DNA of 52,701 bases from a virus, in IMG/VR virus record IMGVR_UViG_3300042465_005662, positions 1 through 52,701 of that record. One strand, given 5' to 3'. Position numbers and translations under genes: made by a program. How positions within the stretch are numbered: the first letter of the stretch is position 1; each line of letters opens with the position of its first letter. Of the stretch, positions 4,617 to 19,168 are shown one piece after another. The notes under the pieces are model-generated. The model saw nothing but the letters and a program-made list of their open reading frames with translations, was not told the origin of the DNA and ran no database searches.

Positions 4617-4806
4617 ACCCTCCCTGACCCGTCCTACGCCCCCCTACGACACTGGCAAGGTCAAGATTGGCATGTGTTACATCCAAACCCAGCCCTGGTC
4701 CCCGAGCCGCGATGCGTACAACTTGCAAACCGCTTTGTTGTCCCCTGCCCGTGGCCGCGGTCCAGTGTCCATCCGCCTCTTTGCTTTCCTGAAGGGTTTT
4801 GTATGA
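4603..4806 (+). CDS. 67-aa phage protein, unknown function
   Basis: The ATG at 4603 is supported by GTGGAGG upstream. The product (MQPTKPSLTRPTPPYDTGKV...) is basic and proline-rich at the N-terminus. It overlaps the previous gene by 14 nt, and its stop overlaps the next start as ATGA, placing it in the coupled operon. No domain is recognised. Confidence 0.55.
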   Translation: MQPTKPSLTRPTPPYDTGKVKIGMCYIQTQPWSPSRDAYNLQTALLSPARGRGPVSIRLFAFLKGFV

Positions 4807-5132
4807 CCGACCACACAAAAGAAGGCCTGTTGCTTTTTAACTACACATGCGACGAGTTAGGTGTTGATCTGGCTTGTTGGTTTGAATACGAAGCCGCGAG
4901 CCACGGCGCGAGAAGCCGTTTCGGTGAGCAGTTGGAGCCCGACTACCCGGCCACCTGGTCCCTGTACCACGTCTACCTGCCCAACTCTGACGTGGACATC
5001 GCCCCTGTGTTGTCGTCTGACGTGGCCAAGGAGATTGAGAACTGGGTGGCGGACCAGGCCGAAGAGGAGGCTGCTGATCAGGAATGGGATGACGGGTACG
5101 ACAAGTTTCAAGACTGGAAGGATGCGCAATGA
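4803..5132 (+). CDS. 109-aa acidic phage protein, unknown function
   Basis: Starts at an ATGA overlap with the previous stop. The product is very acidic, especially at the C-terminal end (VADQAEEEAADQEWDDGYDKF). The N-terminal part includes GLLLFNYTCDELGVDLACWFEYEA. An acidic small protein in an early operon could be a DNA mimic or inhibitor, but nothing in the sequence proves this. Confidence 0.65.
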   Translation: MTDHTKEGLLLFNYTCDELGVDLACWFEYEAASHGARSRFGEQLEPDYPATWSLYHVYLPNSDVDIAPVLSSDVAKEIENWVADQAEEEAADQEWDDGYDKFQDWKDAQ

Positions 5133-5374
5133 ACGAAGCAATGAAAAAAGCCTGGCTAGAGATTGACCAGATGTTGGGTGAGCCGACCCGCGAGGAGTTG
5201 GACGTGTTCCTGCGCACGTGGCAAAGGGCCATACAAGCGGAGCGCGAGGAGTGCGCGAAGCTCTGCGATGGCTGGGATTTTGTGCCCGGTGGTCACGAGT
5301 TCACCCCGCAGCAGTTGACCAAGAACCTCACCGATACGATTGCAACCCGCATCCGCGCAAGGGGGCAAGCATGA
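5129..5374 (+). CDS. 81-aa phage protein with EREECAK...IRARG pattern
   Basis: ATGA overlap with the previous gene; AAGGA upstream. The helical sequence WQRAIQAEREECAKLCDG and the C-terminal ATRIRARGQA match a short pattern repeated in many small phage proteins and also in the gene at 6215-6466. Function unknown. Confidence 0.65.
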   Translation: MNEAMKKAWLEIDQMLGEPTREELDVFLRTWQRAIQAEREECAKLCDGWDFVPGGHEFTPQQLTKNLTDTIATRIRARGQA

Positions 5375-5511
5375 ACGCGATCCTGGAATTCCTCAAGCGT
5401 TGGTTCGGCCCTGTCCCGCCAGCACAGACTGACGAACATTGCCCCTACTGTCACGGCCTTGGCTATGACAGCAGCGGATGGACTTGCACTTGCTTGAGGG
5501 AGAAGAAATGA
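5371..5511 (+). CDS. 46-aa zinc-ribbon-like phage protein
   Basis: ATGA overlap with the previous stop and a purine-rich SD inside the upstream gene. The protein has an amphipathic N-terminal helix (MNAILEFLKRWFG) and a C-x2-C ... C-x-C arrangement (HCPYCHGLGYDSSGWTCTC) typical of a small zinc-binding knuckle. It may bind nucleic acid or a protein partner; function unknown. Confidence 0.6.
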   Translation: MNAILEFLKRWFGPVPPAQTDEHCPYCHGLGYDSSGWTCTCLREKK

Positions 5512-6218
5512 CGACGCAATTGGTTCGAGACTCCATGAAGCTGATGTCTGATGCTGGCGTAGATATTGTGGACATCAAGTGGTTCGACCTGACCGGAGCA
5601 TTTTCAGAACATAAACATGCCAACCTTGAGCCTGTGATGACGCATCGCCCACCATTTGACAAATGTTTTGTCACTTGGAGGGGAAAGACTCGCAGCCACC
5701 CAAGCTACGAGGTCTTGATGTTGGTGTCTGGGACAGAGCCAGACGAGGGAATCACGGTGTCAATGTGGAAGGGTCCGAGTGGTACAAGGTTGCGCCCCAT
5801 CCCCGCGATGTTTTACTTCATAGAGGATGACAATATCCGTTATGGCGCAGTCAGTGATGAAGAGCCTGTAGACAAGGAGTTGGCAGAGATCATGCTGGCG
5901 CAGATTGGGGTTTGGTACAGCGCCATGGATGAGCGTATTGAGGCCTACATTCCATCGGTTCGAGATACCTTCACAAATCGACGCAAGGTACAGCAGGGCA
6001 AGCTGCCGACCTACGACTGGACAACGGTTTGGATTGAGCCAGCCAAGCCCCGCCAAGACCCCAAAGGGGGCACACACGCATCACCCCGCCTGCACGACCG
6101 TAGAGGCCACCTGAGGAGGCTCAAAACCGGCAAAAACGTCTGGGTAAAGTCCTGCAAGGTGGGTGACGCAAGCAAGGGAGCAATATTTCACGACTATGCA
6201 ATCAAGGAGCAGAAATGA
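5508..6218 (+). CDS. Conserved 236-aa phage protein, unknown function
   Basis: The ATG at 5508 overlaps the previous stop (ATGA), with AGGGAG just upstream. The C-terminal segment (about 185-236: THASPRLHDRRGHLRRLKTG, then VWVKSCKVGDASKGAIFHDY) is a pattern recognisable in many tailed-phage proteins of unknown function. The His, Arg and Lys content suggests nucleic-acid contact, which is inference. No catalytic motif is evident. Confidence 0.65.
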   Translation: MTTQLVRDSMKLMSDAGVDIVDIKWFDLTGAFSEHKHANLEPVMTHRPPFDKCFVTWRGKTRSHPSYEVLMLVSGTEPDEGITVSMWKGPSGTRLRPIPAMFYFIEDDNIRYGAVSDEEPVDKELAEIMLAQIGVWYSAMDERIEAYIPSVRDTFTNRRKVQQGKLPTYDWTTVWIEPAKPRQDPKGGTHASPRLHDRRGHLRRLKTGKNVWVKSCKVGDASKGAIFHDYAIKEQK

Positions 6219-6466
6219 GAGACACGATAGACATGGCCCGTGAGGCTGGCTGGAAAGACCTGCGTGACTATGACTCAGAAATGCGGCATGACTTTTTTAT
6301 GGGCAATACAGATAGCCTTAAAGCCCTTGTTGCCCTTGCCCGTGCTGATGAGCGCGAGGCGTGTGCCGTGATTGCTGAAACGCCAATTAGCGGTGAGCAG
6401 GACGACATCACTATGCAGGCTAAAGACCGAGTTGCCGCTGCCATTCGAGCAAGGGGAAACACATGA
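6215..6466 (+). CDS. 83-aa phage protein with EREACAV...IRARG pattern
   Basis: ATGA overlap, AAGGAG upstream. The central ARADEREACAVIAETP and terminal AAAIRARGNT are shared with the gene at 5129-5374 and with many small phage proteins. The N-terminal MREAGW-type segment is also common. Probably a small helical protein; function unknown. Confidence 0.65.
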   Translation: MRDTIDMAREAGWKDLRDYDSEMRHDFFMGNTDSLKALVALARADEREACAVIAETPISGEQDDITMQAKDRVAAAIRARGNT

Positions 6467-6960
6467 TCTACAAAACCTTTGAGCAGTGGAAAAGCGGCAA
6501 CGTGCTGGAGCATGGCATCTCCCGCACCGAGCATTACAGCGAAGACCAACTCGATTTGGTGGAGATGGGCTGGAATTATGGCTACGATGCTGGCCGCGCA
6601 GTGGAGCAAGCCCTCGACAAGAAAGCAGAGAACGCCAAAGAACTGGGGCTGGACTATGAGCCAGCACCTGTGCAGGAGCCTGTATGCGACAAAGACCCGC
6701 AAGGATGTTGGAGTGTGCGATGCCAGCTTGGAAATAAATGCAAGAACACCACCCCACCCGCAGCACAGCGGGAACCCGCACCCGGTTATTGCAAGCACTG
6801 TAAGCAGTACACGATTGAAGAGCCGCTGCCCGCAGCACAGCGGCAATGGGTTGGGCTGACGGATGAGGAGAAGCAGCAAATATTTGAGCGAGAAGACTAT
6901 CAAGGTTGGCTTGACTATATCAACGCCATTGAAGCCAAACTCAAGGAGAAGAACGCATGA
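6463..6960 (+). CDS. Modular 165-aa phage protein with PPAAQR repeats
   Basis: ATGA overlap, GGGGA upstream. It has an N-terminal helical part (residues 1-60), a Cys-rich middle (CDKDPQGCWSVRCQLGNKC and CKHC) and two copies of a PAAQR module, the second continuing into QWVGLTDEE. It ends with AKLKEKNA, which also encodes the SD of the next gene. The same modules appear in the gene at 7202-7543. Function unknown. Confidence 0.65.
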   Translation: MIYKTFEQWKSGNVLEHGISRTEHYSEDQLDLVEMGWNYGYDAGRAVEQALDKKAENAKELGLDYEPAPVQEPVCDKDPQGCWSVRCQLGNKCKNTTPPAAQREPAPGYCKHCKQYTIEEPLPAAQRQWVGLTDEEKQQIFEREDYQGWLDYINAIEAKLKEKNA

Positions 6961-7205
6961 CACCAAAACAAGAAGAAGCGTTGCGGGATTACTTGCGTGA
7001 GGCTGTCGTGCCGCTGATTGAAGATGTGCTGACCAAGAAACTGGGGCAAGCCATGACATTTGCAAAAGAAGAACTTGCACAGCCAGCACCTGTGCCGATT
7101 AAACCAATTGTCGATCCTGACCTCGATGTAAACCAGCGCCTTGCTTTTAAGCTCGGATGGAAGTCAGCAGAGGAAGCCCACGGCATCACGAAAGGCCAGC
7201 CATGA
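6957..7205 (+). CDS. 82-aa phage protein with QPAPVP linker
   Basis: ATGA overlap with an AAGGAG site in the upstream gene. An N-terminal helix (QEEALRDYLREAVVPLIEDVL) leads to a QPAPVP linker and a C-terminal helix (NQRLAFKLGWKSAEEAHG). The linker sequence recurs at the start of the next gene at DNA level. Function unknown. Confidence 0.6.
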   Translation: MTPKQEEALRDYLREAVVPLIEDVLTKKLGQAMTFAKEELAQPAPVPIKPIVDPDLDVNQRLAFKLGWKSAEEAHGITKGQP

Positions 7206-7543
7206 CACACACAAAAGACGAAGCACAGCCAGCACCTGTACCTGATTGGAAAGACGGATTTATGGAACAACAAGCAGAAACAATACTTTGGCAAGCCAAG
7301 CGCATTGCAGAATTGTTAGATCAACAAGCCGCACAGCCAGAGCAGGGGCCTGTGGCGTGGGCCAAGTTTTTGCATTACCCAGAATGCTGGGATACGGCAG
7401 CATATCCGACTTTGCATGACGCAATTCACGAAGCATTGGCGTGGGCTGGTTGCAGTGTTTGCACCCCACCCGCAGCACAGCGCACATGGGTTGGGCTATG
7501 TGCTGAATGGGCAAACGACGAACTCAAGGAGAAAAACGCATGA
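7202..7543 (+). CDS. Modular 113-aa phage protein with PPAAQR module
   Basis: ATGA overlap. It starts with a QPAPVPDWKDGF linker similar to the previous protein, has a coiled helix (QQAETILWQAKRIAELLDQQ) and ends with TPPAAQRTWVGL plus ELKEKNA, as in the gene at 6463-6960. A 20-bp stretch at 7463-7482 is identical to 6751-6770. It probably arose by duplication and shuffling; function unknown. Confidence 0.6.
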   Translation: MTHTKDEAQPAPVPDWKDGFMEQQAETILWQAKRIAELLDQQAAQPEQGPVAWAKFLHYPECWDTAAYPTLHDAIHEALAWAGCSVCTPPAAQRTWVGLCAEWANDELKEKNA

Positions 7544-7713
7544 CCTACGACTACCAAGGATCGCTGTCCCAGAAGATGGTGGATGAACTGCTGGAGGTGA
7601 TACACAAGTACGACCACACGATGATGGCGGCAACAGCCATCGGATGCCTTGAGATCGTCAAAGCGCAACTGCTGCAAGAACATATGGAGGTGGAAGATGA
7701 CGATGACCTGTAA
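7540..7713 (+). CDS. 57-aa phage protein, unknown function
   Basis: ATGA overlap, AAGGAG in the upstream gene. The short helical protein MTYDYQGSLSQKMVDELLEVI ends in a run of acidic residues (EVEDDDDL). Its end overlaps the start of the following gene. No domain recognised. Confidence 0.6.
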   Translation: MTYDYQGSLSQKMVDELLEVIHKYDHTMMAATAIGCLEIVKAQLLQEHMEVEDDDDL

Positions 7714-7831
7714 ACACCGCTGGGAGCCAAGCAACTTTGCCATCAAGTACCGCACACCCAACCACTACATTTTTGAATGCAAGCGATGCGGCAAAAGCAT
7801 CTTCGCAACACTAAAGGAGAAGCAAGCATGA
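7697..7831 (+). CDS. 44-aa zinc-ribbon-like protein
   Basis: Starts at 7697 (GGAGGTGGAAG upstream); an in-frame ATG at 7703 is an alternative. The CKHRWEP...FECKRCGKSIF pattern gives C-x-H and C-x2-C pairs typical of a minimal zinc ribbon, common in tiny phage proteins. Function unknown. Confidence 0.6.
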   Translation: MTMTCKHRWEPSNFAIKYRTPNHYIFECKRCGKSIFATLKEKQA

Positions 7832-7983
7832 CTAAAGTAGAAGCACTGCAAGCAATCAAATTGCTGTCCGCCCTGGAGTCGTGGGCCATGAGCCAGCAAA
7901 AAACTCTTCCTCCCTACTTGGATCAATACCTTGTAGAGACCATGGAAGTGATGGAGCGAATCTTGTTGGAAGAAAAGCCATGA
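7828..7983 (+). CDS. 51-aa helical phage protein
   Basis: ATGA overlap, AAAGGAG upstream. Short helical product (TKVEALQAIKLLSALESWAM ... VMERILLEEKP). No family recognised; position in the coupled operon is the main support. Confidence 0.55.
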   Translation: MTKVEALQAIKLLSALESWAMSQQKTLPPYLDQYLVETMEVMERILLEEKP

Positions 7984-8219
7984 CCGCCGAAGACGAAGAA
8001 TTCAACCGCATCGAGCGCGAGGCATCCATGCGCAAGGCCGCGGTCCTCGTCGCGATCACCAAGAAGGAGTGGATCAGCCTCCCGGACGAAGAGATAGTTG
8101 CCGCGATCCACGAGGCTGAGGGGTTCGCCTTTGGCCTGGACAACGGCAACGTGTCGGACAGGTCCGTGATCGAGTATGTGCGGATTGTTGAAGAACTGCT
8201 GAGGAAGAAAAACACATGA
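7980..8219 (+). CDS. 79-aa phage protein, unknown function
   Basis: ATGA overlap with GGAAG upstream. The product is charged and helical (FNRIEREASMRKAAVLVA ... SLPDEEIVAAIHEAEGFAF). The ending ELLRKKNT is again the amino-acid reading of the next gene's SD. Function unknown. Confidence 0.6.
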   Translation: MTAEDEEFNRIEREASMRKAAVLVAITKKEWISLPDEEIVAAIHEAEGFAFGLDNGNVSDRSVIEYVRIVEELLRKKNT

Positions 8220-8845
8220 GCTACATCATTGCATCCCTCCCTCCGCTCAAATGCTTTGTGCGGCGCGAGTTTCTGTACAACCACACCAAGGGCCAGGGCG
8301 AGTTTGAGCCCGCCATCTGGGTCAGCATTAAAGCGCTGCGCGGTCAGGTGTTCAGGATCGAATCGCTCCTGCCCAACTACGGCGCGCTGTACGACAAGCT
8401 GCCCTTGCATGCCTATGTCTGGACACACAGCCACGGCGACTTGCCCATCGACACGCTGCAACTGTGGGACTGCATGGGCTACCGCTTCACGGTCCTCGAG
8501 AAGATCGGTCTGCGCAACCTCGGCGTCAAGTTCCTGGGTAAGGACAAGAAGTGGCACCACGGGCGCTACATGTTCACCGTGGACTTCTGTGCGGACGGTA
8601 TGGACGTTGACACGGGGTTCACGGAGCAGGCTGAGGAGCACAAGAGCTTCAACTTCATCCGCTTGGAGAACGGCCAGTTTGCTTGCCAGCCAAACAACCG
8701 CTGCCTGTGGTACGACCAGAGCTTGATTCCTGCTGAGGTGAAGCTCCCTGATTTCCAGGCGGCGAAGGATTTTTACACTGTTGACGGTTCGCGCAAATGG
8801 GCCGCGGGCGACGATTGGTTTTACGGTATGGAGGAGAGAACATGA
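8216..8845 (+). CDS. Conserved 209-aa phage protein, unknown function
   Basis: ATGA overlap, AGGAAG upstream. The opening (LPPLKCFVRREFLYN...GEFEPAIWVSIKALRG) and YGALYDKLPLHAYVWTHSHGDLP are a pattern I recognise as widespread in environmental phages. Many His, Asp and Trp residues are scattered (TLQLWDCMGYRF, KKWHHGRYMFTVDF), but no known catalytic motif is clear. Function unknown. Confidence 0.7.
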   Translation: MSYIIASLPPLKCFVRREFLYNHTKGQGEFEPAIWVSIKALRGQVFRIESLLPNYGALYDKLPLHAYVWTHSHGDLPIDTLQLWDCMGYRFTVLEKIGLRNLGVKFLGKDKKWHHGRYMFTVDFCADGMDVDTGFTEQAEEHKSFNFIRLENGQFACQPNNRCLWYDQSLIPAEVKLPDFQAAKDFYTVDGSRKWAAGDDWFYGMEERT

Positions 8846-9051
8846 AAAAAGACATGAAGGTCTGGGCGATCAAGCTCAGGGGCCGCAGCTTCTACAAAGA
8901 CAGCTACGACATTCCTTTTGTTTATCCAACAAGGATTGCCGCGGTGATGGAAACCGAGAAGATTGCAGACTGGAAGAACAGGAACCCGATGAACAGAAGC
9001 CCATCAACCGAAGTAGTGCGCGTCAGATTGCGCATAGAGGAGATCGCATGA
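8842..9051 (+). CDS. 69-aa phage protein, unknown function
   Basis: ATGA overlap, GGAGGAGA upstream. A small basic alpha/beta-looking protein (MKKDMKVWAIKLRGRSFY...). No family recognised. Confidence 0.6.
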   Translation: MKKDMKVWAIKLRGRSFYKDSYDIPFVYPTRIAAVMETEKIADWKNRNPMNRSPSTEVVRVRLRIEEIA

Positions 9052-9284
9052 GAAAACAAACCTGCAACTGCCACCCTGACTCACCTTTTCACTGGGCGCG
9101 CAACCCGCAGCCCAGCATTTTTGTCAATGATGTCGCGTTCCGGCCCAAGAAGGCGCAGGTGTACGAGAACCTGACACAGGAGGAGAACCTAGTGGCCTAC
9201 AAGCAATTCAGCATCCACAGCCGTGCGCATCCCAAGATCAAGCCAAGCCTGAACAAACACGAACTCGGAGGGATTAGAAAATGA
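9048..9284 (+). CDS. 78-aa phage protein, unknown function
   Basis: ATGA overlap, AGAGGAG upstream. The N-terminus TCNCHPDSPFHWARNPQPS has a C-x-C-H cluster that could bind metal. The rest is basic (FRPKKAQVYENLTQEENL). Function unknown. Confidence 0.55.
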   Translation: MRKQTCNCHPDSPFHWARNPQPSIFVNDVAFRPKKAQVYENLTQEENLVAYKQFSIHSRAHPKIKPSLNKHELGGIRK

Positions 9285-9466
9285 AATGGAAAGAGTGGGG
9301 CGAGAACCATTGGGTGCTGATCGACAGCCGAGGCGAAGTGGTTGACGAAATCAAACGCGACAGCCAATTCTTCTTTGTACTGAAAAGCACCAACAAGAAG
9401 TTTGTCGACATCAACAAAGCCAAGAAATCTAGAATGACAGGAGTAGAAAATGGAAAACGGGATTAA
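9281..9466 (+). CDS. 61-aa phage protein, unknown function
   Basis: ATGA overlap, CGGAGGG upstream. Small protein rich in Lys and aromatic residues, probably a beta-hairpin start (MKWKEWGENHWVLIDSRGEVV). It overlaps the following HTH gene by 17 nt. Function unknown. Confidence 0.55.
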   Translation: MKWKEWGENHWVLIDSRGEVVDEIKRDSQFFFVLKSTNKKFVDINKAKKSRMTGVENGKRD

Positions 9467-9740
9467 AAGAATTCGTCTGTGCATGGGCCTGACCCAGCAG
9501 CAGTTTGCTGACATGCTGGAATGCTCCCAGGGCAACATTGGCCACTACGAGCTGCGCGATCAAATGGTCCCGCCCGAGACGGCCAGGAAACTTATTGCTG
9601 AAGCCGCGAAGCGCGGTTCACGAGTCACGTACGAAGACATCTACGGCACCGTGGACGAGCCTGTTGTCAAGATGAGCCCCCGCGCACGCAGGGAGATATT
9701 GGAAATCACCGAAAGGAGAGCACGCCATGCAGAAGATTGA
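9450..9740 (+). CDS. XRE/Cro-type helix-turn-helix regulator
   Basis: A 96-aa DNA-binding protein. Residues about 4-50 form an XRE-type domain, with LCMGLTQQQFADMLECSQ as helices 1-2 and GNIGHYELRDQMVPPETARKL as the recognition helix and following turn. It is a likely transcription regulator of the phage early switch, by family resemblance. The C-terminal half (about 55-96) is charged and without a domain call. It starts inside the upstream gene behind AGGAG. Targets could include the short dyads at the early promoters; this is not shown by the sequence. Confidence 0.75.
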   Translation: MENGIKRIRLCMGLTQQQFADMLECSQGNIGHYELRDQMVPPETARKLIAEAAKRGSRVTYEDIYGTVDEPVVKMSPRARREILEITERRARHAED

Positions 9741-10125
9741 ACACGACGTCTACGTCATCATCACCGAGTTGGGCGCACAGGCCGAAGTGGTGATCCCTCC
9801 GTTTGAGCTCAACGACATCCGCCGCGAGCGTGACGAGTACCTGTCGCAGACAGCCTCTGACCTCTACGACCGTGTGGTGTACATGGTGCGCAGTGAAGGC
9901 TTGGAATACGACCCTGTGCTGGACGAGGGCGAGGGCCCTGCAGTGGAGCTGGAAGTGCGCATGGGCATGTTCTCTACATCCACTGTGTTTTGGCGCGAGA
10001 CGCGGCGCGAGAGGCAGGACAGGGTAAAAGAGGTCATCAACGAAGCGTTCGCTCGCGTGTTGAACATGCAGAGAAACTTTGACGACTTGGCACGCGAAGA
10101 GGAAGAAGATGAGAAAGCGAAGTAA
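9727..10125 (+). CDS. 132-aa acidic phage protein, unknown function
   Basis: It overlaps the HTH gene by 14 nt, with an AAAGGAGAG site inside it. The product is charged and largely helical (PPFELNDIRRERDEYLSQT) with an acidic Glu-rich end (LAREEEEDEKAK). No family recognised; it follows the regulator closely and may work with it. Confidence 0.6.
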   Translation: MQKIEHDVYVIITELGAQAEVVIPPFELNDIRRERDEYLSQTASDLYDRVVYMVRSEGLEYDPVLDEGEGPAVELEVRMGMFSTSTVFWRETRRERQDRVKEVINEAFARVLNMQRNFDDLAREEEEDEKAK

Positions 10126-10597
10126 ATACCGGCCACGCGGCGTGATTTACGACACCATGCTGCACGTCACGAGCGGCATGAAGGTGGTAGGTGCAATCAG
10201 CGCTGGGACCACGCTCAAGATCAAGAATCACGCGGCGCTCGAACAGGTGCGCCAGGGCCTCGGTACGCGAGAAGATATTGACGTTCTCATTTGCGCATTC
10301 AACATCACAGAAGCTCTGGCTTTGATGCGCATTGGGGACGACTGGAAGGATGAGATTCGGGCCGCGCAAGACGCGCTCCTGGCGGTGGGACGCCGGGGCG
10401 TGGAGACTGGCAAGTTTATTTTGCGCGGACCCGAGCTCACCTCTTTCAACTTGGCCATGGAGATACATGACGCACAACTCGATGCCTGTACTGTAGCTGA
10501 ATTGGAAAAGGCTATCGACTTTGTCGAGACGATTGTCAAGAACAAACAGGCACGGCCCATCATACGAAAGCAGCATGCAAAAGAAGAACACGCCTGA
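10109..10597 (+). CDS. 162-aa phage protein, unknown function
   Basis: The ATG at 10109 follows AGAGGAAGAAG inside the previous gene's acidic tail. The pattern resembles a conserved small phage family with a basic start (MRKRSKYRPRGVIYDTM) and a helical core containing NHAALEQVRQGLGTREDID. It may bind nucleic acid; function unknown. Confidence 0.6.
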   Translation: MRKRSKYRPRGVIYDTMLHVTSGMKVVGAISAGTTLKIKNHAALEQVRQGLGTREDIDVLICAFNITEALALMRIGDDWKDEIRAAQDALLAVGRRGVETGKFILRGPELTSFNLAMEIHDAQLDACTVAELEKAIDFVETIVKNKQARPIIRKQHAKEEHA

Positions 10598-10733
10598 GGG
10601 CGCAGCACCCCTATCACAAGAGGAGCTCAAGGCTTGGTGGCCCTTTGAGCGCCTGGACCCGAAGAGGTTCCCCAAGCAACCCAAGGCCACTGAACCCGAT
10701 CCGCTTGCGGACATTGAAGAAGCACTTTTATAG
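10575..10733 (+). CDS. 52-aa phage protein, unknown function
   Basis: Starts at 10575 within the end of the previous gene; an SD-like GAAAGCAG lies upstream. Short proline-rich protein (LKAWWPFERLDPKRFPKQP) ending in an acidic helix (DPLADIEEALL). Function unknown. Confidence 0.5.
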   Translation: MQKKNTPEGAAPLSQEELKAWWPFERLDPKRFPKQPKATEPDPLADIEEALL

Positions 10734-10742
10734 GAGAACCCC

Positions 10743-11327
10743 ATGAGCAAAAAATTAAAACCCACCACCCTTGCAATTCTTGCAGCCCTGAAGGCCAAAC
10801 CGGAGGCCAAGCCGCGGGAACTTGCTGCAGAGTACGGCGTCGCTGTCAGCTACATCTACAAGCTGCGCAAGAAGCTGACCGAAGGCAGGCGCAAGATTAC
10901 CCTGACCCGCGACCAAGTGGAGATCGCAAAGAAGTTGGGCGTGTCCCTGGAAGACTATGTCAAAGAAGGCCTGAAGATGGGCGCGCTGCAGTTTGACGGC
11001 GAGCGTCCAATCGTCAATCCAGAGATCACTATGGAGCCCGAGGAGACGAACGTGGACCAGATTCTGGGAGAGCGCGGCAATCGCTACGGCACCTTTGAAA
11101 GCAATGCCAAGACCTGCCAGTTGCTGAAGAACGTGCTGCACTCACAAGAGGGCTGGTACCGCCTTTCTTATGTCCAACGTGAGGCGGTGGAAATGATGAT
11201 GCACAAGATCTCCCGCTTGGTGAATGGTGATGCGACCTATCTTGATACGGTTGTTGACATTGCAGGCTATAATCAGCTCATGTTGGAACACATGAGGGAT
11301 CGAAATGAAGGCAAGAAAGTGGAATAA
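10743..11327 (+). CDS. HTH plus DUF6378-like protein
   Basis: A 194-aa fusion-like protein with a good SD (AGGAGAACCCC) before ATG 10743. Residues about 8-45 look like a helix-turn-helix (AKPRELAAEYGVAVSYIYKL). A short motif follows at 56-75 (TRDQVEIAKKLGVSLEDYV). Residues about 108-190 match the phage DUF6378 pattern (RGNRYGTFESNAKTCQLLK ... AVEMMMHKISRLVNGD ... DIAGY). The last domain is usually a stand-alone phage protein of unknown function. The motif at 56-75 is strikingly like the end of the cut protein at 52510-52701. Confidence 0.7.
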   Translation: MSKKLKPTTLAILAALKAKPEAKPRELAAEYGVAVSYIYKLRKKLTEGRRKITLTRDQVEIAKKLGVSLEDYVKEGLKMGALQFDGERPIVNPEITMEPEETNVDQILGERGNRYGTFESNAKTCQLLKNVLHSQEGWYRLSYVQREAVEMMMHKISRLVNGDATYLDTVVDIAGYNQLMLEHMRDRNEGKKVE

Positions 11328-11841
11328 CAGCACGCAGCAACGGGCATATTACTCCTGGAGAAACATGCGCAGACGCTGCACCAATCCTAGCGATGACTCC
11401 TATCACCACTACGGGGGTCGTGGCATAACAGTGTGTGAACGCTGGGAAAGCTACGACGCCTTTTTTGAAGACATGGGCAACCCGGCACCGGGCCTGTCAC
11501 TTGATAGGATTGATAACAGCAAGGGCTATTCACCAGAGAATTGCCGATGGGCCACGGTCCGCGAGCAACTTAACAATCAGCGCAGAAATGTGGTGATTGA
11601 ACACAGCGGCATCAAGATGACGATTGGTCAGTGGGCCACGCATCTTGGGCTGCATTACGACACCCTTCACAAACGGCTTGAACGGATGGGGCCCGAAAAG
11701 GCTCTTCAAAAAGGCAGATTGAAAGAGTGGAAGCACGGAACGCGGGCCGGGTATGAAGGCCACGGCTGCCGCTGCGACCTTTGCAAAGAATCAAACAACG
11801 CCCGTCACCGGGCACAAAGAGAGAAACGGAGAAACACATGA
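11305..11841 (+). CDS. HNH/AP2-like endonuclease with C-terminal Cys motif
   Basis: A 178-aa phage protein. Residues 12-95 carry the SWRNMRRRCTNPSDDSYHHY, GGRGITVCERW and LSLDRIDNSKGYSPENCRWA signatures of a homing-type HNH family (D68-x-x-D70-N and N79-C-R-W). Residues 103-140 look like a helix-turn-helix (TIGQWATHLGLHYDTLHKRL). Residues 141-165 hold HGTRAGYEGHGCRCDLCK, a small Cys-His motif also seen in other phage proteins. Such genes are often mobile. The classic second catalytic His of HNH is not obvious, so activity is uncertain. Confidence 0.65.
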   Translation: MKARKWNNSTQQRAYYSWRNMRRRCTNPSDDSYHHYGGRGITVCERWESYDAFFEDMGNPAPGLSLDRIDNSKGYSPENCRWATVREQLNNQRRNVVIEHSGIKMTIGQWATHLGLHYDTLHKRLERMGPEKALQKGRLKEWKHGTRAGYEGHGCRCDLCKESNNARHRAQREKRRNT

Positions 11842-12005
11842 GCGATACCGTAGGCCTTGTCTTGATGATCTGGGTTGCAGCCGCATGGCTCACCCACGTG
11901 GTGGCTTCTATCCAAACAGCAAAGTGGCTTTTGCTGCTGGTCGGGGCCATTTTCTTTCCTGTTGGCTGCGTGCACGGCACGGGCATTTGGTTTGGGTGGT
12001 TTTGA
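11838..12005 (+). CDS. 55-aa two-helix membrane protein
   Basis: ATGA overlap, CGGAGA upstream. Two hydrophobic stretches (about 6-22 and 28-44) predict two transmembrane helices with few charges. The ending GTGIWFGWF resembles small phage inner-membrane proteins. It could alter the host membrane during infection; function unknown. TGATG overlap with the next gene. Confidence 0.6.
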   Translation: MSDTVGLVLMIWVAAAWLTHVVASIQTAKWLLLLVGAIFFPVGCVHGTGIWFGWF

Positions 12006-17499: not shown

Positions 17500-18276
17500 T
17501 CAAAATGGTGCAGCGTTCGAGCTTGCAGCGCCTTCAGCGTGCTCGTGCTTGACCTTGACGTCACCAGCATTGATCTGCTGTGCGAAAGACTTGGCAGCCG
17601 TATAGGCGTTCATGTCTTCAACAGGGCCGACCTTCTCCACTTCCCAACCAAACCACTTGCCCTTGTCATTCGACTCGGCCTGTGTCGTCAAGCGATACAG
17701 GTGGCTGTACATAGGAGGCGTGAACGGACCGTTCTTGCCCATCATCTTGGTGGACATCAACATGCTGTTCCACTTGCGTGACTTCTTCAGTTGTGTCGAC
17801 TTCATCGTGATCAACGCTGGCTCTGGGATGCCGCTGTCGTTGATGACCATCACGTAGTGGTTGGCCGTGTTCTCGATGTAGTTGCCGTTGTCCAGATAGT
17901 CCTTGCTGTCGCCCGGTTCGCGGTGCGTGCGCGTGAGGATATCGGACGTTGCGGGGTAGACAGCGATTGGAGCACCGCTGCCCGAGCCGCGTGGGGCCCA
18001 CTCGATGTACTGGCGAACGTAGGTCACGGGGATGACTATGATGCCTGCCTTGCCGTCATGCAGTTCACCTGTAACAGTGTTCATGATCATGCCGGGCAGA
18101 GCGCCGTCCACTTCACCCACTTCTGGGCTGGTGTTGGTCAACAGGCGCAGGAACGGGAGCGCAAAGTCTTCCTGGCCCATGCCGTCAAAGCCACTGTTGG
18201 CATCGTCTTCAAACACGTTGCCCAATGCAACTGCGTACTCTTTGTTCTCTGGAACTGCGACTTGATTCTTGCTCAT
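17500..18276 (-). CDS. Conserved phage protein, candidate ssDNA-binding protein
   Basis: A 258-aa protein of a family common in phage replication blocks. The typical pattern is DFALPFLRLLTNTSPEVGE, GMIMNTVTGELHDGKAGI and VIPVTYVRQYIEW. The location next to the primase, the likely OB-type beta-rich core and a C-terminus ending in Pro-Phe (as in many SSBs) make single-stranded DNA binding plausible, but the tail is not strongly acidic. Start ATG 18276 has a strong AAAGGAA site. A recombination-partner role is the alternative. Confidence 0.6.
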   Translation of the reverse strand: MSKNQVAVPENKEYAVALGNVFEDDANSGFDGMGQEDFALPFLRLLTNTSPEVGEVDGALPGMIMNTVTGELHDGKAGIIVIPVTYVRQYIEWAPRGSGSGAPIAVYPATSDILTRTHREPGDSKDYLDNGNYIENTANHYVMVINDSGIPEPALITMKSTQLKKSRKWNSMLMSTKMMGKNGPFTPPMYSHLYRLTTQAESNDKGKWFGWEVEKVGPVEDMNAYTAAKSFAQQINAGDVKVKHEHAEGAASSNAAPF

Positions 18277-18288
18277 GATTGATTTCCT

Positions 18289-18846
18289 TTAGGCTGATTT
18301 AATGGTCGCTTTTTGGCCGATGAATACGCCAAAAAGGTCTGTCGGGAACGCGGTGCCGCGTTCCGTTTGCTCACGAACCCAGGCCTTGAGGGTCTGGGGT
18401 TCGATCTTCTGCGCTTGCTCCACAGGGTAGCTTTGCTCACGCAGCAGATTCAGTAGGCTCTCGCACAGTTGGTCTTCTCCTCGACCGAACCGCACGGAGA
18501 CCGTGTTTTTGATGATGTCGTCGTAGCCGTTGTCACGCAGCCATTCGTAGGCCTGGGCCCGGTTCTCTTCCTTAATGGAGGCAGAGTAGAAAGGCTTGAC
18601 AGTGATCTTGCTGCCGTCCGACATGGTGAATTCCTTCATGCCAAGCTCAGTTAGCATGTTGGGCAGTGTCTCTTCTTGCATTTTGCGCAGTTGCTCCGCG
18701 CGCTCTTTAAGAACAGACTCCATTTCTTCAATTTCTTTTTCCAGCATCTTGGCGCGCTTGGCCAATGCTGCAACAGAAGACAGGTCCTCATCCTTTACGG
18801 TGAGAGCGCCTGCGTCCTCTTCAAACATGGAATTTAAATTACTCAT
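18289..18846 (-). CDS. Conserved 185-aa phage replication-block protein
   Basis: The ATG at 18846 follows a perfect AAAGGAG. Residues about 20-65 are a coiled coil (AKRAKMLEKEIEEMESVL). The conserved C-terminal half (YEWLRDNGYDDIIKNTVSVR, FGRGED, and LKAWVREQTERGTAFPTDLF) matches a family repeatedly seen beside phage SSB/primase genes. Function unknown. It overlaps the end of the 109-aa gene by 8 nt. Confidence 0.7.
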   Translation of the reverse strand: MSNLNSMFEEDAGALTVKDEDLSSVAALAKRAKMLEKEIEEMESVLKERAEQLRKMQEETLPNMLTELGMKEFTMSDGSKITVKPFYSASIKEENRAQAYEWLRDNGYDDIIKNTVSVRFGRGEDQLCESLLNLLREQSYPVEQAQKIEPQTLKAWVREQTERGTAFPTDLFGVFIGQKATIKSA

Positions 18847-19168
18847 CGATTTCTCCTTTCTGGGTGACGTCAATTCTGACAGGTAGATACAAGTGCTCGC
18901 GGCGATCCCACTTCAGCGCTGTGTAACGGCCATTGTTGAAAAATGCAGCAATCGAGCAGGCCAAGCCAATCGCTACGGGGTCCCCTGCCAAAAGCAGAAA
19001 GTCCTCGTCAGTGTAATTGCGCAGTTTATTACGCAATGTGCGGATCGTGGGTGCAGTGCTGAACGCAATCTGGTTGTATGTAGGCAGCAAGATCTTCATC
19101 TCACCAAACTTCATAGCAGGTGTCAAATTGTGATTTGGCATCTCTTGCACAACAAATACGGTTGTCAT
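18839..19168 (-). CDS. Conserved 109-aa phage protein
   Basis: First gene of the leftward replication operon. The pattern IRTLRNKLRNYTDEDFLLLAGDP followed by IGLACSIAAFFNNGRYTALKWDR is very common among tailed phages with no known function. The start at 19168 is preceded by GAAAGGATAGCGTAAAC, the same SD leader as the early operons. Confidence 0.75.
   Translation of the reverse strand: MTTVFVVQEMPNHNLTPAMKFGEMKILLPTYNQIAFSTAPTIRTLRNKLRNYTDEDFLLLAGDPVAIGLACSIAAFFNNGRYTALKWDRREHLYLPVRIDVTQKGEIDE

What the first reader, a model, noticed from the sequence alone, without database searches (positions are those of the whole stretch)
4803..12005. Sixteen ATGA junctions with SD sites encoded in C-terminal codons, producing shared C-terminal tags
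Gene after gene ends in LKEKNA, LKEKQA, LRKKNT, RARGNT or RARGQA. These endings are simply the translation of an AAGGAG-type SD plus the ATGA overlap. The apparent conserved C-terminal peptide is thus a by-product of extreme translational coupling, and a warning for motif searches. It also implies that gene modules can be swapped at these junctions.
Basis: seen in the sequence. Interest (0 to 1): 0.6.

Follow-up and report, generated by a model that had tools for sequence, protein, structure and literature searches.

The report
Shuffled phage genes with ribosome-site tails
In a group of mostly uncultured freshwater phages, small early genes overlap head to tail and the last codons of each gene double as the ribosome-binding site of the next, so the genes share protein tails and behave like interchangeable modules whose order is reshuffled exactly at these joints.

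Summary
The window has exactly 16 ATGA stop/start overlaps at the stated places, with none on the antisense strand of that region. Their upstream ends pair with the 16S anti-SD far better than same-frame windows in the same genes (mean -7.4 vs -2.2 kcal/mol). Only 6 of the 16 carry the listed endings (9 with close variants). C-terminal IRARGNT is ATGA in 109/111 genes and AKLKEKNT in 122/129. Most exceptions use GTGA or TTGA, and the one gene that lost the overlap also lost the SD by synonymous changes. "Simply SD plus ATGA" is incomplete, however. DNA identity of about 93% covers 24-27 nt, including rare codons outside the SD, while flanks on both sides are at chance. Most tags are the 3' ends of two shuffled gene families, so homology also contributes. 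Module swapping is strongly supported: DNA shared at 90% or more on one side of a tag junction breaks there in 81-83% of cases, against 46-52% at other ATGA+SD junctions and 1.6% inside long genes. The kind is known (lambda nin region, "boundary sequences"); this is an unusually clean and extreme variant. Whether the patch drives recombination is open.

The parts
4803..9284 (+). run of 15 of the 16 ATGA-linked junctions (g3-g17; the ATGA at 9281 starts g18). One 17-nt overlap (g11/g12) interrupts the run.
5348..5374 (+). type A junction patch at the 3' end of g4 (RIRARGQA; CGC ATC CGC GCA AGG GGG CAA GCA TGA), overlaps start of g5
   Evidence: dG -10.5
6440..6466 (+). type A junction patch at the 3' end of g7 (GCC ATT CGA GCA AGG GGA AAC ACA TGA), overlaps start of g8
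6931..6960 (+). type B junction patch at the 3' end of g8 (GAA GCC AAA CTC AAG GAG AAG AAC GCA TGA), overlaps start of g9
   Evidence: repeat family D4
7514..7543 (+). type B junction patch at the 3' end of g10 (LKEKNA), overlaps start of g11
7802..7831 (+). type B-like junction patch at the 3' end of g12 (LKEKQA), whose body is unrelated to g8; overlaps start of g13
8190..8219 (+). 3' end of g14 (LRKKNT) with SD AGGAAG and AACACATGA
5485..5511 (+). 3' end of g5 (CTCLREKK) with SD GAGGGAG and ATGA
6192..6218 (+). 3' end of g6 (DYAIKEQK) with SD AAGGAG and ATGA; homologues end IKENT or IKEKNT
11812..11841 (+). 3' end of g24 (EKRRNT) with SD and AACACATGA; sixteenth ATGA junction (11838), away from the main run
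6215..6466 (+). g7, EREACA...IRARGNT family; homologues have 56 different upstream C-terminal pentapeptides and 62 different downstream N-terminal pentapeptides
6463..6960 (+). g8, mosaic protein with internal linkers (PAPVQEP, PAAQRxWVGL) that are also homology breakpoints
7540..7713 (+). g11 (phrog_3546, unknown); follows RARGNT or other ends in relatives
7697..7831 (+). g12 (phrog_7696, CKHRW small protein); genes starting MTCKH follow RARGNT and KENT ends in relatives

Best explanation
The region is a chain of small, mostly non-core early genes in which every gene is a self-contained plug-in module. It starts at the A of ATGA and carries, inside its own last codons, the SD and spacer for whatever gene follows. 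The shared C-terminal peptides are the translation of these 3' RBS/overlap patches: type A ATCCGAGCAAGGGGGAACACATGA, type B GAAGCCAAACTCAAGGAGAAGAACACATGA, and a short form AAGGAGAACACATGA. Each patch type is mostly tied to one gene family. Because any module's tail can start any module's head, recombinants joined at ATGA stay in frame and translatable, and the early region is reshuffled at single-gene resolution. Shown: SD coding, near-obligate overlap, DNA conservation beyond the SD, flanks at chance identity, breakpoints at the junctions. Inferred: translational coupling, and that short homology at the patch helps recombination in addition to selection for translatable joints.
For: SD energies against same-frame controls. 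Codon-blind scans: 231/240 tags at ATGA, 7 more at GTGA/TTGA; L268, which lost the overlap, has AAA GAA instead of AAG GAG. Tag codons inside and outside the SD against background. Mean pairwise identity of the patch is 0.93-0.94; it is about 0.28 from 20 nt upstream and 0.26-0.34 downstream; 134 downstream protein clusters. Breakpoint test at 90% identity or more: tag 0.81/0.83, other ATGA with SD 0.46-0.52, ATGA without SD 0.20-0.32, inside long genes 0.016. Breaks pile up within about 10 nt of the ATGA when the upstream side is shared and within the last 30 nt when the downstream side is shared; regional control holds. For the window itself, homology to relatives starts or stops at -2 to +5 nt of many junctions. 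Patch DNA occurs 299 times at an overlap with an upstream ORF of at least 35 codons and never as a free-standing RBS, whereas generic AAGGAG sites do so 304 times. Two annotated lake phages, DSL-LC04 and DSL-LC05, carry the patch at annotated 4-nt overlaps.
Against: Most tags sit on two gene families (bodies: 99/102 and 109/118 in one linked group), so family homology explains part of the sharing. Swap pairs with the same tag type on both sides are 2.4 times more frequent than expected (17 vs 7.2 at 90% identity or more), but they are a minority of the 83 swaps involving a tag and may be confounded by diverged homologues. Exact runs of 23 nt or more exist in only 21-26% of patch pairs with unrelated flanks. 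No recombinase of the Rad52/RecT kind was identified among the window proteins scanned. Coupling is not measured.
Confidence: 0.82

Rival explanations
1. One reading: the tags are only the translation of an SD plus ATGA, arising independently at each junction by selection for translation, with no shared history.
For: SD and ATGA codons are the most constrained; the seven remaining window junctions mostly have SDs with other peptides; families ending with different peptides, such as g13 (LEEKP) and g16 (RIEEI), also overlap by ATGA.
Against: Independent origin would not give CGA in 84% of the first Arg codons (background 0.14), GCC AAA CTC, or a fixed AAC spacer codon outside the SD, nor family-specific tags.
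Confidence: 0.12
2. The C-terminal peptides are functional protein motifs (for binding or turnover) conserved by selection on the proteins, and the SD is incidental.
For: Residues outside the SD (AIRA, IEAKL) are conserved within the two families, and L268 keeps the peptide after losing SD and overlap.
Against: Codon choice is fixed at DNA level (AGG 0.96 vs 0.10). Stops are TGA after NNA in 231/240. The g6 family ends variously KENT, KEKNT or KEQK while keeping AAGGAG.
Confidence: 0.06
3. The patches are boundary sequences maintained because they serve as homology for phage recombinases: recombination targeting, rather than translation, explains the conservation outside the SD.
For: Patch length (24-30 nt) is near the 23-27 bp minimal pairing length reported for Red-beta (PMC3945230). 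Breaks are more frequent at tag junctions than at other ATGA+SD junctions in the same region. Same-type swaps are in excess. A few patches sit on unrelated bodies.
Against: Most swaps join different junction types. Untagged ATGA junctions with an SD also break often (0.45-0.54). No single-strand annealing protein was found in the window.
Confidence: 0.3

Closest known systems
nin region of lambdoid phages (Kroger and Hobom 1982; described in PMC8022706)
   Same: Chain of small non-essential early genes linked by ATGA with the SD in the C-terminal codons. In lambda (L375), ninB, ninC, ninG and ninI end RAA, EAA, EAA and EGA from GCTGCATGA, GCCGCATGA and GGCGCATGA, a mild form of the same shared tails.
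   Different: Lambda shares only the last codons. Here the conserved DNA patch is 24-30 nt, comes in recognisable types, and marks breakpoints in hundreds of contigs.
Short conserved boundary sequences at mosaic junctions (discussed in PMC3029335; mycobacteriophage Island3 gp67/gp68 share 18 C-terminal residues and about 50 bp)
   Same: Shared 3' ends at DNA level next to gene replacements.
   Different: That paper says such sequences cannot be found at most mosaic boundaries. Here they are found at a large set of boundaries and double as the RBS.
T4-type mobile regulatory cassettes (Arbiol et al. 2010; title only seen)
   Same: A regulatory element proposed to mediate modular shuffling.
   Different: From my own knowledge, those are intergenic promoter/stem-loop elements. 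These are coding 3' ends with RBS and overlap. The paper is not held, so this was not checked.
Termination-reinitiation at overlapping gene pairs (Huber et al. 2019, PMC6728339)
   Same: 4-nt overlaps with intragenic SD; about half or more of such pairs in most prokaryote groups have one.
   Different: Concerns cellular gene pairs and expression, not tag sharing or module exchange.

Membership tests
lambda nin-type chain of interlinked genes | many successive ATGA stop/start overlaps between small co-directed genes | tested here: met
   16 ATGA in the window, 0 antisense
lambda nin-type chain of interlinked genes | SD of each gene inside the coding 3' end of the previous gene | tested here: met
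   12 of 16 at or below -6 kcal/mol vs 7% of controls; 3 weak
lambda nin-type chain of interlinked genes | homology to nin genes / location between replication genes and Q | tested here: not met
   no nin family hits for the region proteins scanned in PHROGs or Pfam; the region lies next to a PolA gene. It works like a nin chain but is not the nin region.
boundary sequences of mosaic phage genomes | short conserved DNA between otherwise unrelated flanks | tested here: met
   0.93-0.94 identity against chance-level flanks
boundary sequences of mosaic phage genomes | recombination joints coincide with them | tested here: met
boundary sequences of mosaic phage genomes | recombination is driven by homology at the sequence | tested here: inconclusive
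   same-type swaps 17 vs 7.2 expected, confounded by family homology
translationally coupled gene pairs | downstream translation depends on upstream translation | not testable with these tools
   needs reporters or ribosome profiling

The most novel reading that the evidence does not exclude
A community of freshwater phages shares a small set of portable 24-30 nt RBS/overlap patches that act both as translation signals and as homology for phage recombinases, giving a plug-and-play early operon in which whole single genes are exchanged at a standard joint.
Probability: 0.35. Interest if true: 0.75.

Novelty: new variant of a known kind. Interest (0 to 1): 0.58.

Why it matters
How phage mosaics are joined (short conserved boundary sequences or illegitimate recombination plus selection) is an old question, hampered by the lack of recognisable boundary sequences at most joints. 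Here the joint is recognisable, repeated, and readable both as protein and as RBS, so the question can be tested directly. It also warns that shared C-terminal motifs in phage proteins can be DNA signals rather than protein functions, and it suggests why hypervariable early regions tolerate gene exchange.

Tried and rejected
Search for near relatives in INPHARED with the 8-kb region: none. Type A patch in 85,000 bacterial/archaeal genomes: none; type B once, in a 6.3-kb contig of a Betaproteobacteria MAG, so host assignment remains weak. The idea that the patch is just the general RBS of these phages was rejected: it never occurs as a free-standing RBS. The idea that the tags are pure by-products of SD and ATGA was rejected by codons outside the SD. 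The idea that the tags sit on unrelated genes as a rule was rejected: most belong to two families, though a few are on unrelated bodies such as L327, L200 and L282. A first pooled breakpoint histogram was set aside for pseudo-replication and replaced by the per-junction test with regional control. The ACA 100% figure is true by construction (only ATGA junctions were kept there) and is not used; one search gives the unselected figure.

Full report
What is there. The window is a whole IMG/VR record of 52,701 bases. It carries PolA, UvrD-type and SNF2 helicases, primase, a PD-(D/E)XK-like exonuclease, terminase small subunit, tape measure and tail fibre genes. Between 4383 and 12295 lie 26 co-directed ORFs, mostly small; most of those scanned have no match in PHROGs or Pfam. 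Sixteen of their 25 junctions are ATGA overlaps, at exactly the stated range. The antisense strand of that stretch has none.

SD sites. At the 16 junctions the 15 nt before the spacer pair with the anti-SD at -7.4 kcal/mol on average, against -2.2 for 1402 same-frame windows in the same genes; 12 of 16 are at or below -6. Because the frame of an ATGA junction is fixed, an AAGGAG in frame reads KE, and one in another frame reads (A)RG. The last codon is always NNA. The listed endings occur at 6 of 16 junctions, not at nearly all.

I fetched 130 loci related to g8 and g7. Of 111 and 129 real gene ends, 109 and 122 are ATGA. Seven of the nine others are GTGA or TTGA overlaps with an open downstream frame, and one (L163) has TAG followed directly by ATG. 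The last (L268) has lost the overlap, and its SD codons have become AAA GAA while the peptide remains. So the tag essentially does not occur without a next gene starting at or beside its end.

More than SD plus ATGA. Codons outside the SD are also fixed: CGA 0.84 against 0.14 expected, GCC 0.88 against 0.32, AAA 0.76 against 0.37, CTC 0.57 against 0.16 (binomial values ignore relatedness). Yet related history is gone from the flanks. Patches agree at 0.93-0.94, while DNA from 20 nt upstream agrees at about 0.28 and downstream DNA at 0.26-0.34 in ungapped comparison, and 134 protein clusters follow the two tags. The patch DNA is never used as an ordinary RBS, unlike generic AAGGAG sites. Most tagged genes fall into two families, one with EREACA plus RARG and one with WVGLTDEE plus LKEKN. 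Only 3 of 102 and 9 of 118 bodies fall outside the main group of each type. In the window, g4 and g7 belong to the first family. g8 and g10 share the PAAQRxWVGL motif of the second. g12 has the tag on a body with no match to g8.

Shuffling. Homologues of g7 are preceded by 56 different C-terminal pentapeptides in 73 cases (69 ATGA) and followed by 62 different N-terminal pentapeptides in 78 ATGA cases; 17 homologues of g13 have 17 different upstream ends. When two loci share at least 90% identical DNA on one side of a tag junction, the homology ends at the junction in 81-83% of cases. The figure is 46-52% at other ATGA junctions with an SD, 20-32% at ATGA without SD, and 1.6% inside long genes. 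Restricting controls to junctions within 2 kb of a tag does not change this, and the breaks lie within a few bases of the ATGA or within the patch. In the window itself, relatives begin or stop matching at -2, -1, 0, +3 or +5 nt of many junctions, and neighbouring genes have their closest relatives in different contigs.

Mechanism. I take each gene as a module with a standard head (ATG followed by A) and a tail that carries the SD and spacer of the next gene. Recombinants at the joint stay translatable whatever follows, so selection alone would concentrate surviving joints there. Whether patch homology also promotes the exchange is unsettled. Same-type swaps are in excess (17 against 7.2), but they may include diverged homologues, and exact runs of 23 nt or more, the length reported as sufficient for Red-beta (PMC3945230), occur in only a fifth to a quarter of pairs with unrelated flanks. 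Coupled translation is likely from work on overlapping pairs (PMC6728339) but is not shown here.

Known kind. ATGA chains with SDs in coding ends are known from the lambda nin region (PMC8022706). Lambda genes there share short AA tails from GCTGCATGA-like ends. A shared 3' end at a mosaic joint has been described in mycobacteriophages (PMC3029335). The present case differs in patch length, in recurrence across hundreds of contigs, and in the measurable excess of breaks. It is a new variant of a known kind.

Limits. The loci were selected by the tags or their families. Many are fragments, and gene calls are simple ORFs. Counts are not corrected for phylogeny, although near-identical loci were removed. 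The host is unknown.

Noticed in passing
window 6655-6683, 6750-6770, 6822-6857, 7077-7096, 7223-7242, 7462-7497: Repeated in-frame DNA linkers inside genes (PAPV and PAAQRxWVGL motifs) coincide with intragenic homology breakpoints in g8 relatives, so domains inside genes seem to be shuffled at short repeats too.
   Followed up: partly
window 6350-6366 and 5240-5256: The EREACA-coding stretch is a second breakpoint inside g7 homologues: many relatives match only up to it or only from it on.
   Followed up: partly
ATGA junctions in related loci: The hexamer AACACA before TGA (ending NT) is the commonest end even at untagged SD-bearing ATGA junctions (49/759 and 46/778) but is not among the common ends at those without SD, so the spacer itself seems preferred.
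   Followed up: partly
window 8216-8845: g15 is a strong match to phrog_3704 (annotated ferredoxin, moron/auxiliary class; E 6.5e-74); its family follows several different tags in relatives.
   Followed up: no
window 17500-18873: Two adjacent genes match cyanophage Pam3 gp34- and gp33-like families of unknown function (Pfam Pam3_Gp34, DUF7307).
   Followed up: no
L327 and L092: A gene with an HTH-like body, unlike the usual type B family, ends in AKLKEKNT, a likely case of the patch having been copied onto an unrelated gene.
   Followed up: partly
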